Of a stretch of 64,000 bases of DNA, positions 995 to 61,400 are shown piece after piece. Position numbers and translations under genes: made by a program. The notes under the pieces were generated by a model. It had not been told where the DNA came from. It worked only from the letters and a program-made list of their open reading frames with translations, and did no database searches. The DNA comes from Batillaria attramentaria (taxonomy: Eukaryota > Mollusca > Gastropoda > Batillariidae), in assembly GCA_018292915.2 (NCBI GenBank), contig JACVVK020000227.1, positions 930,001 to 994,000 of the forward strand, given 5' to 3'. The first letter of the stretch is position 1. Every line of letters starts with the position of its first letter.

Positions 995-3900
995 GTACAT
1001 CTCTCCCTCCACCACCCATTCTTCCCTCCCGTCTCAACCCCCCACCCCCCAACACCCGCTTCTGATTCAAAATGAGAGAGAGAGAGAGAGAGAGAGAGAG
1101 AGAGTTTAAACTTTGATTTATCCATTCACTGGATAACTTCGGAACTTGAAACTAAAAGAAATCCCCAGAACTTTCCACATAATAGTGTCTGATCGTATTT
1201 GTTTGGTGACGCAGCCGCCAGGTGTCGCATCCGTTGAAGACTCTGAGCCATGTGGTGGACGTGCTGCAGACAGACGGTATCCGTGGAAACAGTCAGTAAC
1301 TATAACTATGGTTGACTTACTAACAGTCAGTAACTATAACTATGGTTGACTTACTAACAGTCAGTAACTATAACTATGGTTGACTTACTAACAGTCAGTA
1401 ACTATAACTATGGTTGACTTACTAACAGTCAGTAACTATAACTATGGTTGACTTACTAACAGTCAGTAACTATAACTATGGTTGACTTACTAACAGTCAG
1501 TAACTATAACTATGGTTAACTTACTAACAGTCAGTAACTATAACTATGGTTGACTTACTAACAGTCAGTAACTATAACCAAACTATGGCCAAAGTCATGG
1601 ATCCCAATCACCACCTCAGATAGTACGGGATCTCCAAGAGGCGAATTTGTATTGTTAGCCCTGGCCGAGTTAGCCTAAGTAAAATACAGATTTTAGTTTT
1701 TTGTCTGATCGTCAAGCCAAACAATTGCTTTGTTAAAAGACACGAAGTTCCTGGGGAAAAATAGGACTGTTAAAGTGTTCATGGAGTAGACAAGTGCGAT
1801 GTGTCGATCGGACAATGTGTGCATGTTAGTAGTCACTGTTTGACATCAGTTATTCTTTCTTTCTGATGTTTAAACTTCTTTCCTGTGCTGGCGTAAGCCA
1901 GCTAGGACTAGTTTATCATCCCAGCTAGGACTAGTTTATCATCCCAGCTAGGACTAGTTTATCATCCCAGCTAGGACTAGTTTATCGTCCCAGCTAGGAC
2001 TAGTTTATCATCCCAGCTAGGACTAGTTTATCGTCCCAGCTAGGACTAGTTTATCGTCCCAGCTAGGACTAGTTTATCGTCCCAGCTAGGACTAGTTTAT
2101 CATCCCAGCTAGGACTAGTTTATCATCCCAGCTAGGACTAGTTTATCGTCCCAGCTAGGACTAGTTTATCGTCCCAGGTAATTTGAAGTAGTCCATAATT
2201 GTCAGTGTCTCTTGTTGGTTCACATACGTTTAACATCTTTCATACCGACACATCATGAGCAGACTGTGCCGCGTTGGCGAATACAGTCCATTTATAATTT
2301 ACGTTTGTCAGCTTAGATTTAGGCGAGTCCCTATAGCACAGCGGGTAACCAGCAAGGCGAGTCCCTATAGCACAGCGGGTAACCAGCAAGGCGAGTCCCT
2401 ATAGCACAGCGGGTAACCAGCAAGGCGAGTCCCTATAGCACAGCGGGTAACCAGCAAGGCGAGTCCCCATAGCACAGCGGGTAACCAGCAAGGCGAGTCC
2501 CTATAGCACAGCGGGTAACCAGCAAGCGTTCATTGTTCTTATCGTGTGTGTGTGTGTGTGTGTGTGTGTGTGTGTGTGTGTGTGTGTGTGTGTGTGTGTG
2601 TGTTTCAAGCTGTCTTTGTGGAGATGATGAAAGGTTACTATGACCTGTCTTCGACTTGGCACTTCAGCCATCACGTCACTGGTACCGTTGTTTTCAGGGC
2701 CTACCAGGGACAAGAGGTGCACGTGGTAAGTTCTTTGTCTTTCTGTGTCTGTGTTTCTCTCTCTCTCTCTCTCTCTCACACACACACACACACACACACA
2801 CACACACACACACACACACACACACACACACACACACACACACACACACACACACTCTCTTTCTCTCTCTCTCCGGAAACAGCTTATGCTCAACAAAAGT
2901 CTAATGATTCATAGAGTCTTAAATGGCAAATCCCCAGAATACCTTAGTGCTCTACTTGACATGAGCACGACCAACACGAGGAACAGCTTGCTCCGTCTGC
3001 CACTACCTAGGACTGACATCTTCAAATCCAGTCTGTCCTTTTCTGGATCCTACTTATGGAATGCACTACCTCCGTACCTGAAATCCATTCATGGGCTGTC
3101 CAAATTCAGGGAAGCCACAACAATATATGTCCGGTCATTGAACGTGTCCTAGTCTATTCGCACGATCCAAGCACACTTTATCTAGTACATGTACATATAT
3201 TCCAACACATATCCACTGCCGTTACATTCATTATGATATCCTTTATGTTAGCGTGCGTTTCACGGTAGAGCTATAGAAATATGCGACATACATGTTTTCG
3301 AATGTTAGTGACGACCTTGAAGTTCTTACTTGGCATACAGCCAATATCATCGACACATGCCATGTATGTTTTGATTTGTTTATCATGTGTACTTTTGTCT
3401 TCCTCATTTCCTCTAGATAGTTAATACTTTTGTTTTGTCTTTTTTATGTTGTTTCCATAGTAATGGAAACAACATAATAGGACGGGCTAAAATTTCCACG
3501 TTCATGGGCAAGCATCTGTGGTACAAACGCACGTCACTGCCGATCTCCCGCAGAGACGATTTTGCAAGTGTAACTCTGACAATGACGTAAGAAAACTTGC
3601 GTCATCGATGCTGACGCGTATGATGTTCCGAACGCAGTTCTCCTCCTCCTGAGTGCCGTCTGTGTGGATGTGCGTGTGTGTGTGAATTGTGTCCGGGCCC
3701 GTTTCTTCGAAAATACTTAACCGAATGGCTTCAAATTTGGGGTATCCAAATTTATCAAAATGTTACATTAGACGATTCAAGCGTGTGATGATTGCTTAAG
3801 TGATTTGGGAGTTATCGCCCTTTTGAGACAAGTTGGTTGTCTTTCGTGTACAGGCGTAATATTTATTTAAATCACTCAATTTTTTGGCAGTAGATAGCTT

Positions 3901-58400: not shown

Positions 58401-61400
58401 CGAATGTATTTCACCAGGTGATGTATGGCGTGGAGGTGTGGAGTGTACGACTATGGCTGAGTGTGTGTGCGCATGTGATATGTGGATGAGCAGATAAGTG
58501 TGCAAAGCATGGTTGATTTTATGTGGAGATTTTGTTTTTGTGATGGACTAAATTATTTTGAATTACAGTTTTCTTCTTAATCATGAAATTCATAACAGTA
58601 TTTCTGCCAGGAGTGTATTTGATGGGTGTATGAGTGAAGAGTGCGTGGATGCATGGTGTAAATTACATAGGCGTACACCAGTAGATCAGTGCCTATGATG
58701 AACTATAGTAGTATCCCCTGAATTGTAGATTTGTTTTTAATAATGTAATTATAATACGTAGCTTCACTATGTAGTATGTATTATGTGTGCAGGTTATTTC
58801 ACTTTGTGGTGTGTGGCATGGCAGTATGCATGAGAAGAGTGTATGCTATGACTATGGATAAGTCACTTAAGTGTGTGGGTGCATATATATATGTGATGGG
58901 TGGACGCGCGTGTGGGTGCATGGCTGATTTCTTCATGGAGATTTTGTTCTTGTGTCATAATAGTTGTACTGTGTATTATGTGATCAAGAGCTGTACACGA
59001 TAAATTTTCCTGAGGGGATTAATAAAGTTCTTATCTTCTTATTATCTCTCTTATATTTTTCCTACCTGCAAGTAACCTTAACTGCCAAATTTGTTTACTA
59101 ATCATGTATAGTTTATATTGTCATAGGCAAAAGGGACAAGACAGATTGTTTTGAATAGAATAGTGCATCATTTGCAGCCACAAAACATCACAGTATTGAT
59201 ACTTCTTATGAAGGGTCATCACAGACTTGTCCCTCATTTTCTGAAGTAGTGCGCATACTTACGTTTGGGATCTCTTCAGATTTGAAATCAGCGTGAAATT
59301 TACATTTAGGGACACTTAAAATTTTGTGATTTGCACAAATTTGAAAAAAAACTCAAAAACTAGGCCTTTTAGAGGCCTCTGGCCCACGGCCTAGTAGGAA
59401 TAAAATAAACAACAAACAAGCAAAGAGAAAGACACATTGACAGACTGACTGACGGCAGACAGACAGACCAGCAGACAGACTCCACTGTGGCAGTCTGGGT
59501 AATGATCACGTGATGTGGTTTACAGGCAAGCCCATATCAAACTCCACTGTGGAAGTCTGGGTAATGATCACGTGATGTGGTTTACAGGAGAGCCCGTATC
59601 AAACTCCACTGTGGCAGTCTGGGTAATGATCACGTGATGTGGTTTACAGGAGAGCCCGTATCAAACTCCACTGTGGCAGTCTGGGTAATGATCACCTGAT
59701 GTGGTTTACAGGAGAGCCCGTATCAAACTCCACTGTGGCAGTCTGGGTAATGATCACGTGATGTGGGTTTAGTGATGCTCGTAACAGTACTCGTTCAATC
59801 TGATGGTTTAATACCTCAGAAACAGCACAAGAAAGAGAGGCGCTACAAACCTCCCAACACAATAATTCGAGAACGTCAAAGCGGCACGTCATCGGCGTCT
59901 GCAAAACTTTGTGCAACATTATTGTTGTGCATAAACGTCACCGCGCGTGGTTCTGTTCGTACTTCCAGGCATATCCACATCTTGTGTTACGAAGTGGTAA
60001 GTGGTGTCACAAAAGTGGCTTTTAGACGGTCGACGGACACTTTTTCTGAGCGACCATTGATGTCGAGGGTGTAGAATTTGTCATTTGTGTCAATGATGCG
60101 GAAAGGGCCGTCATAAGGTCGCTGGAGTGGGTGGCGGTGCGCGTCGTGTCTCACATAGACAAAACCAGTGGAGGCCAGGTTTGAAGGCATGTAGACGCGT
60201 TGCTTTCCATGGTAAGTCGGGGCTGGCGGTAGCGCAGTGCGCATGCTTCGTTGCAGAGCTTTAAGGAAGCTTGAGTCTGGTTCCACGGCATGAGTGTCTA
60301 ACGGTTGAAGAAACTCACCAGGCAGGCGAAGAGTCGAACCATAGACAAGTTCAGCGGGGGAACAGCCAGGGTCTACTCGCCAAGAAGAACGTATACCTAG
60401 TAGGACTAGGGGTAGTTCTGTGAACCAGCTGGGAGTAGTAGTGCGTGCTTTGAGTGCTGCTTTCAGCTGACGATGGAAACGCTCAACCATACCATTGGCC
60501 TGGCTGTGGTTTTGTGAATTTCAATGCCTAAGAGTTTGTTGCACTCAGTCCAGAGGTTTGAGGTAAACTGACTTCCTCGATCAGATGTGATTTCTTCAGG
60601 GACACCATACCTGGCAATCCAGTGATGGACAAGAGCTTCATGGGTTACAGGCAAGCCCGTATCAAACTCCACTGTGGCAGTCTGGGTAATGATCACGTGA
60701 TGTGGGTTACAGGAGAGCCCGTATCAAACTTCACTGTGGCAGTCTGGGTAATGATCACGTGATGTGGTTTACAGGAGAGCCCGTATCAAACTCCACTGTG
60801 GCAGTCTGGGTAATGATCACGTGATGTGGGTTACAGGAGAGCCCGTATCAAACTCCACTGTGGCAGTCTGGGTAATGATCACGTGATGTGGGTTACAGGC
60901 AAGCCCGTATCAAACTCCACTGTGGCAGTCTGGGTAATGATCACGTGATGTGGGTTACAGGCAAGCCCGTATCAAACTCCACTGTGGCAGTCTGGGTAAT
61001 GATCACGTGATGTGGGTTACAGGCAAGCCCGTATCAAACTCCTCTGTGGCAGTCTCGGTACCCGGAACTGGCCAACATTCTCAGTAAACATCCTGAGGCA
61101 CCCGAAGGTTTGACTTGTTATAAAGCATGAACTCTGATTTCACACCAGTTACATAACAGAAACACTTTCTCACTCTTGCAATGTATAGACACTACATCCT
61201 GATACCCAGGCCGAACAACAGGACCCGTCTGACACAGGACGAGAGCGATAAACTTTAGCAGACAATGTATAGACACTACATCCTGATACCCAGGCCGACC
61301 ATCAGGACCCGTCTGACACAGGACGAGAGCGATAAACTTTAGCAGACAATGTATAGACACTACATCCTGATACCCAGGCCGACCATCAGGACCCGTCTGA

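What the first reader, a model, noticed from the sequence alone, without database searches (positions are those of the whole stretch)
1292..61022. Minisatellites repeatedly built from the splice junctions of the same two genes
In at least a dozen introns the tandem unit is a piece of exon plus its donor or acceptor, starting exactly at the real junction. Donor-derived cases: exons 2, 4, 8, 11, 13, 17 and 20 of gene A and 2 and 13 of gene B. Acceptor-derived cases: exons 12 and 22 of gene A and 9, 10 and 15 of gene B. Random slippage would not be expected to favour splice sites this strongly, so a junction-linked mechanism (for example R-loop, spliceosome or reverse-splicing related breakage) or selection on introns deserves testing.
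Basis: partly seen in the sequence, partly recalled or inferred. Interest (0 to 1): 0.88.

Follow-up and report, generated by a model that had tools for sequence, protein, structure and literature searches.

The report
Splice-junction minisatellites beside a telomere
In three neighbouring snail genes near a chromosome end, many introns hold tandem repeats whose unit carries a copy of a splice junction; similar repeats called mirages are known from amphioxus, and here they likely arose as ordinary duplications in a repeat-saturated chromosome end, with a weak, unproven excess at splice donors.

Summary
The window is from the snail Batillaria attramentaria and holds two tandem beta-helix genes, A and B. 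At 12 of the 14 listed junctions a minisatellite overlaps the exon, so its outermost copy is the exon end itself; B13 and A22 are not such cases. The arrays do not start at the junction: they reach 4-70 nt into the exon with no preferred offset.

The contig ends in TTAGGG repeats 61-125 kb from the window. Minisatellites fill 61% of intron and 68% of intergenic DNA there, but 0.9-2% around two paralogs elsewhere. In genes A, B and neighbour C, 17 of 86 intronic arrays span a junction; random-placement nulls expect 7-13.5 (P 0.155 to 0.001, by null). Acceptors (4 of 59) are at expectation. Donors (13 of 59; expected 5.0-6.7) exceed it at P 0.001-0.012 uncorrected, weakening to 0.03-0.13 if 8 exon nt are required. 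That residue is unresolved.

The structures match amphioxus "mirages" (globin, Adh, TnC). I file them as a dense subtelomeric mollusc example of that kind, useful as a natural test of splice-site choice among up to 44 competing copies.

The parts
882..38401 (+). Gene A, 22 exons, right-handed beta-helix family; net frameshift in exons 7-8 relative to gene B
40319..62832 (+). Gene B, exons 1-17 in the window (it continues beyond it), open reading frame intact over these exons; Pfam PF13229
   Evidence: B. attramentaria protein P0001
1288..1578 (+). 34-bp array spanning donor A2 (4 exon nt), 8.6 copies
6387..6683 (+). 49-bp array spanning donor A4 (7 exon nt), 6.1 copies
11513..12094 (+). 64-bp array spanning donor A8 (49 exon nt), about 9 copies
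14031..14369 (+). 141-bp array spanning donor A11 (70 exon nt), 2.4 copies
14620..15735 (+). 35-bp array spanning acceptor A12 (17 exon nt), about 32 copies
16444..16693 (+). 50-bp array spanning donor A13 (14 exon nt), 5 copies
25770..31051 (+). Array spanning donor A17 (17 exon nt), units of about 39 and then 27 bp; two TRF blocks, 25770-25900 and 25915-31051
32781..33596 (+). 17-bp array spanning donor A20 (9 exon nt), about 48 copies; GT kept in 4 of 39 scored copies
34753..37157 (+). 82-bp array upstream of A22 that repeats its intronic pyrimidine tract but no exon bases (not a junction-spanning case)
41245..43073 (+). 31-35-bp array spanning donor B2 (4 exon nt); related unit at A2; 44 of 53 scored copies keep GT
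46290..48058 (+). 40-bp array spanning acceptor B9 (32 exon nt), 43-44 copies; 37 of 40 scored copies keep AG
48364..48517 (+). 75-bp duplication spanning acceptor B10 (20 exon nt), 2.1 copies
53622..55391 (+). 21-bp array 342 nt after donor B13; shares about 10 bp with the donor but is not contiguous with it
59479..59771 (+). Outer block of the 62-bp unit repeated at acceptor B15, 4.7 copies
60641..61060 (+). 62-bp array spanning acceptor B15 (38 exon nt), 6.8 copies

Best explanation
These are mirage-type minisatellites, tandem arrays whose repeat unit straddles an exon-intron junction, lying in a minisatellite-saturated subtelomere of the snail Batillaria attramentaria, and they likely began as tandem duplications at more or less random places that survived because the splice site nearest the exon is predicted to stay in use. 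Shown: the arrays, their overlap with exons, the telomere at the contig end, the density contrast with other loci, equal density in introns and intergenic DNA, the conserved coding sequences, and copies that keep GT or AG. Inferred: that duplications arise by break repair or slippage near the telomere (interstitial CCCTAA patches inside introns, one of them inside a duplicated junction, fit break repair), that the copies then multiply by unequal exchange or slippage, and that splicing picks the outermost site. Selection removes arrays that lie inside exons and tolerates those that only straddle an exon end, so junction arrays are the visible edge of a region-wide process. A modest extra preference for donors may exist on top of this.
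For: The contig carrying the window ends in (TTAGGG)n from about 1,054,859 to 1,057,500. Minisatellite fraction: 0.547 over C227:920001-1057500, 0.009 and 0.020 around paralogs D and E; 0.679 intergenic, 0.614 intron, 0.056 exon. A second telomere-ended contig gives 0.743, 0.704, 0.174, 0.680 within about 100 kb of its telomere against 0, 0.221, 0 farther in; one further stretch was all N. D and E have 1 and 2 arrays in 16 and 15 introns; two kinesin genes have no array in 8 introns. Junction overlap is compatible with a uniform spread, and no array lies wholly inside an exon although about 17 would be expected at intron density. At most 6 of 86 arrays are shared as arrays with the orthologous intron of a neighbouring paralog, so most arose after the genes split. 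dN/dS is 0.15 (A-B), 0.16 (A-C), 0.24 (B-C) over exons of equal length. Interstitial telomeric repeats: 13 hits in 6 clusters against 0.1 expected, none in 68 kb elsewhere; one sits inside the duplicated donor segment of gene C. Human subtelomeres show the same kind of VNTR enrichment (PMC7608644, passages).
Against: Donor-spanning arrays exceed expectation under two nulls (13 versus 5.0, P 0.001; 13 versus 6.7, P 0.012), and array starts pile up in the last 25 exon nt (9 versus 3.1). The strictest null for all junctions gives P 0.002. Outside subtelomeres density is not always low: C227:800001-802500 has 0.577, and single stretches of C10 and C53 have 0.22. Splicing was not observed. Gene A carries a net frameshift, so it may no longer be under selection.
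Confidence: 0.7

Rival explanations
1. Donor-linked birth: breaks or slippage occur preferentially at 5' splice sites of transcribed genes (for example at R-loops or paused polymerase), so arrays are founded there more often than elsewhere.
For: 13 of 59 donors spanned, expected 5.0-6.7; gene C alone 5 of 18 (P 0.0145; 0.047); donors 13 to acceptors 4 (sign test P 0.049).
Against: No fixed breakpoint relative to the donor; arrays equally dense in intergenic DNA; gene B shows no donor excess, 1 of 20; the donor excess weakens to P 0.034-0.131 when 8 exon nt are required; two sides and several thresholds were tested.
Confidence: 0.15
2. Selective retention: a copy anchored in a constrained exon end cannot decay, or repeated donor copies help U1 binding in long introns, so junction-spanning arrays persist longer than others.
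For: In 11 of the 13 donor arrays at least one copy keeps GT with a score equal to the real donor in most scored copies.
Against: Acceptor-spanning arrays should benefit from anchoring too but are not in excess (4 of 59); spanning arrays are not longer or richer in copies than others (P 0.18 and 0.68); A20 lost GT in 35 of 39 copies.
Confidence: 0.1
3. Assembly artefact of noisy long reads.
For: The assembly is PacBio Sequel plus FALCON-Unzip polished with Illumina reads (PMC10382545, passages), and gene A shows a net frameshift. Exact copy numbers may be wrong.
Against: Units differ from array to array, copies diverge within many arrays (72-100% match), arrays recur in three genes and on a second telomere-ended contig but are nearly absent from paralogs D and E in the same assembly.
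Confidence: 0.05

Closest known systems
Amphioxus 'mirages' (PMC3087553: section 16 read; PMC3902484: one passage)
   Same: Minisatellite-like tandem duplications that straddle an exon-intron boundary at either the 5' or the 3' side, many copies keeping AG/GT, reported units 10-160 bp; described for Adh3, globin, troponin C and PGBD5 genes.
   Different: Here 17 in three adjacent genes of a mollusc, up to about 59 copies, in a subtelomere where intergenic DNA is as repeat-rich. Normal splicing and length instability were shown in amphioxus and are untested here.
Human subtelomeric VNTR enrichment (PMC7608644, passages)
   Same: VNTRs concentrate near chromosome ends (7.1-fold; 21-fold for GC-rich units over 15 bp).
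   Different: Here the arrays are about 43-46% GC and take up most intron sequence; polymorphism was not tested.
Tandem repeats at exon-intron boundaries of human duplicated genes (PMC2812944, passages)
   Same: Minisatellites of about 30-bp units at exon-intron boundaries of recent paralogs.
   Different: There they change the exon-intron structure; here intron positions are shared by all five paralogs aligned.
Intron gain by tandem or staggered-break duplication (Drosophila PMC2891723, Daphnia PMC4202315; passages)
   Same: Duplicated exon-end or proto-splice sequence; staggered breaks leave direct repeats.
   Different: Those introns are new; here the introns are old and only their contents were duplicated.

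Membership tests
Mirage minisatellites (amphioxus) | Repeat unit spans an exon-intron boundary | tested here: met
   17 arrays with 4-70 exon nt in genes A, B, C
Mirage minisatellites (amphioxus) | Occurs at both 5' and 3' boundaries | tested here: met
   13 donors, 4 acceptors
Mirage minisatellites (amphioxus) | Copies retain splice signals | tested here: met
   At least 75% of scored copies keep GT or AG in 15 of 17 arrays; A20 (4 of 39) and C pos 17 (3 of 6) do not
Mirage minisatellites (amphioxus) | mRNA splicing is normal despite the copies | not testable with these tools
   No RNA data held; the deposited B. attramentaria model P0001 uses the exon-nearest copies at B9, B10 and B15, but how it was supported is unknown
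Mirage minisatellites (amphioxus) | Length instability between haplotypes | not testable with these tools
   One haplotype only
Subtelomeric minisatellite cluster | Lies close to a telomere | tested here: met
   Contig ends in (TTAGGG)n
Subtelomeric minisatellite cluster | Density above the genome interior | tested here: met
   0.547 versus 0.009 and 0.020 at D and E, replicated on C53; one interior stretch of 0.577 is an exception
New intron gained by tandem duplication | Intron position absent from relatives | tested here: not met
   The intron positions with junction arrays are aligned in paralogs D and/or E or in other paralogs without an array at that junction

The most novel reading that the evidence does not exclude
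5' splice sites of genes in repeat-prone chromosome ends are preferred birth sites of minisatellites: donors are spanned two to two-and-a-half times as often as random positions while acceptors are not, because splicing- or transcription-coupled breaks concentrate there or because repeated donor copies are kept by selection.
Probability: 0.2. Interest if true: 0.75.

Novelty: new member of a known kind. Interest (0 to 1): 0.45.

Why it matters
Amphioxus mirages were described one gene at a time with no known cause. This locus offers 17 in three adjacent genes, two dispersed paralogs almost free of arrays as controls, and a chromosomal setting that suggests a cause. It also sets a natural test of splice-site choice: introns with up to 44 donor or 37 acceptor copies resembling the true site, in genes whose coding sequence has been conserved. 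If the donor excess holds genome-wide it would link minisatellite birth to splice sites.

Tried and rejected
Rejected: breakpoint exactly at the junction. Rejected: origin of the introns themselves by duplication, since intron positions are shared with paralogs. Rejected: founding sequence simply donor-like, since GTRAGT occurs in 8 of 106 units against 3.4 by shuffling on the sense strand and 3 against 3.0 on the other, a count that includes the junction arrays themselves. Not distinguished: ancestral versus repeated origin of the A8 and C8 arrays, which begin 49 and 47 nt into the exon. Led nowhere: Pfam on four unexplained open frames gave no family; paper searches found nothing. Not done: the genome-wide test. 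A kinesin search placed 134 exon matches, but sequence for only two of the genes could be taken.

The null matters. Collapsing arrays to one unit per intron gives the highest expectation (13.5); replacing intron length by that of D and E, or by the larger of the two, lowers it to 10.95 and 8.25. The last is biased low because it always takes the longer length. All are reported.
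Full report
What the window is. The window lies at G000:C227:930001-994000 in an assembly of 715,342,989 bases in 863 contigs. The published Batillaria attramentaria assembly has 863 contigs and 715,684,482 bases (PMC10382545, passages), and the best protein match to gene B is a B. attramentaria model, P0001, 93% identical over 89% of the query. Two tandem genes run on the + strand: A (22 exons, 882-38401) and B (17 exons in the window, 40319-62832). Gene B reads through without a break over these exons and matches the right-handed beta-helix family PF13229 (E 2e-14). 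In gene A, exons 7 and 8 are 94 and 115 nt against 92 and 116 in B, a net frameshift: either decay or an assembly error.

The observation. TRF finds 61 merged minisatellite arrays covering 35,976 of 64,000 bases. At 12 of the 14 listed junctions the array runs at least 4 nt into the exon. A22 and B13 do not qualify. The overlap varies from 4 to 70 nt and from 0.12 to 0.80 of a unit; with five further cases in gene C it is compatible with a uniform spread (KS P 0.33, n 17). So the arrays straddle junctions but do not start at them.

Setting. Contig C227 ends in (TTAGGG)n beginning near position 1,054,859. The window is thus 61-125 kb from a chromosome end. A third paralog, C, lies between, and its last exon ends at 1,054,772, about 90 bp before the repeats. 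Over C227:920001-1057500 minisatellites make up 0.547 of the sequence including masked bases. By class they make up 0.679 of intergenic, 0.614 of intron and 0.056 of exon sequence (that label counts the last B intron as intergenic). Around paralogs D (C526) and E (C67) the fraction is 0.009 and 0.020. Other 2.5-kb samples: C227 at 100, 400, 700, 800 and 890 kb gave 0, 0.065, 0, 0.577 and 0.078; C10 gave 0.224; two were all N. A second telomere-ended contig, C53, found by pattern search, gave 0.743, 0.704, 0.174 and 0.680 within about 100 kb of its telomere, one all-N stretch, and 0, 0.221 and 0 farther in. Two kinesin genes, with exon ends taken from profile matches, have no array in 8 introns. 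The repeat load is therefore mainly positional, with exceptions in the interior.

Is there an excess at junctions? For genes A, B and C (59 introns, 86 intronic arrays) 17 arrays span a junction by 4 nt or more, in 16 introns. Expected numbers are 13.5 with arrays collapsed to one unit in each intron (P 0.155), 10.95 with intron lengths from D and E (P 0.035) and 8.25 with the larger of the two lengths (P 0.002), 10.0 from overall intron density (P 0.021) and 8.9 from intergenic density (P 0.008), and 7.1 from the four C53 stretches. With 5 exon nt required, 15 remain, against 13.1 (P 0.309) to 8.0 (P 0.010). By gene, at 5 nt: A 7 of 25 (expected 3.7, P 0.057), B 3 of 29 (5.2, P 0.94), C 5 of 32 (4.2, P 0.40).

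Donors and acceptors differ. Donors: 13 of 59, expected 5.0 (P 0.0011) or 6.7 (P 0.012). Acceptors: 4 of 59, at or below expectation. At 8 exon nt the donor figures are 9 against 4.5 (P 0.034) and 6.0 (P 0.131). Gene A has 7 of 21, B 1 of 20, C 5 of 18. Array starts are in excess in the last 25 exon nt (9 against 3.1) but also somewhat at 25-50 nt inside the intron (6 against 3.1), and array ends are in excess within 50 nt upstream of acceptors (13 against 6.2). None of these P values is corrected for the several thresholds and sides tried. I read this as a suggestive, unproven donor preference on top of a regional process.

Age and constraint. Only 6 of 86 arrays match an array in the orthologous intron of another of the three genes, and some of those matches may rest on shared exon sequence, so most arrays arose after the genes split. 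Over exons of equal length dN/dS is 0.15 for A-B (635 codons, dS 0.88), 0.16 for A-C (439 codons, dS 1.13) and 0.24 for B-C (529 codons, dS 0.48). No array lies wholly within an exon although about 17 would be expected at intron density.

Copies of splice sites. In most junction arrays the copies keep GT or AG with scores like the real site: B2 44 of 53, C position 14 37 of 37, C position 11 18 of 19, B9 acceptor 37 of 40, A12 acceptor 23 of 30 (but only 22% of those score as high as the real site). Exceptions are A20 (4 of 39 keep GT), C position 17 (3 of 6) and A17, where the three copies scored are weaker than the real donor; its main 5-kb block was not scored. If the protein is made as conserved, the copy nearest the exon must be used: the first donor or the last acceptor. 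That is inferred; no RNA was examined. The deposited model P0001 joins exons that way at B9, B10 and B15.

Mechanism. Inferred: recurrent tandem duplication near a telomere, by repair of staggered breaks or slippage, then growth by unequal exchange. Fitting this, the subtelomere holds 13 (CCCTAA)x2 hits in 6 clusters against 0.1 expected, all inside introns of B and C, and none in 68 kb elsewhere. In gene C intron 3 the duplicated segment is exon tail, donor and a telomeric patch together. Telomeric patches at healed breaks are described in vertebrates (PMC8537989, PMC2246262, PMC7215372; search listing only).

Known relatives. Tandem repeats that straddle exon-intron boundaries are known in amphioxus as mirages: globin genes and Adh3, with RT-PCR suggesting normal splicing (PMC3087553, section 16 read), also troponin C and PGBD5 (PMC3902484, one passage). 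The cause was called unclear there. Human boundary repeats in segmental duplications (PMC2812944, passages), intron gain by duplication (PMC2891723; PMC4202315; passages) and direct repeats near splice sites (PMC11782384, abstract) are neighbours. No mollusc mirage appeared in the listings of searches, but that library lacks most subscription journals.

Noticed in passing
G000:C227:1054654-1054772 and 1054859-1057500: The last exon of gene C ends about 90 bp before the telomeric repeats, with only a short GT run between.
   Followed up: partly
window 10932-11561: Gene A exons 7 and 8 carry a net frameshift relative to gene B (lengths 94 and 115 against 92 and 116): decay or assembly error.
   Followed up: partly
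window 59772-60640: A foreign segment splits the 62-bp array before B15; its open frame on the minus strand (59987-60520) has no Pfam match.
   Followed up: partly
window 37158-38245: About 1.1 kb of non-array sequence separates the 82-bp array from a last 37-bp piece of its unit just before exon A22.
   Followed up: no
window 51990-52087; G000:C227:1023213, 1027587, 1035536, 1044347, 1046903: Interstitial (CCCTAA)n patches in intron B12 and in introns 3, 5, 9 and 13 of gene C (counted from its first aligned exon), all in one orientation.
   Followed up: partly
window 17866-23687: A 5.8-kb array of a 20-bp unit in intron A14, with segments whose open frames lie on the opposite strand (21753-22073, 23193-23512), so parts look inverted.
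   Followed up: no
window 11513 and gene C exon at position 8: The A8 and C8 donor arrays begin at nearly the same place (49 and 47 nt into the exon, near TGACGTCA), while B8 has none: shared ancestry with loss, or a recurrent breakpoint.
   Followed up: partly
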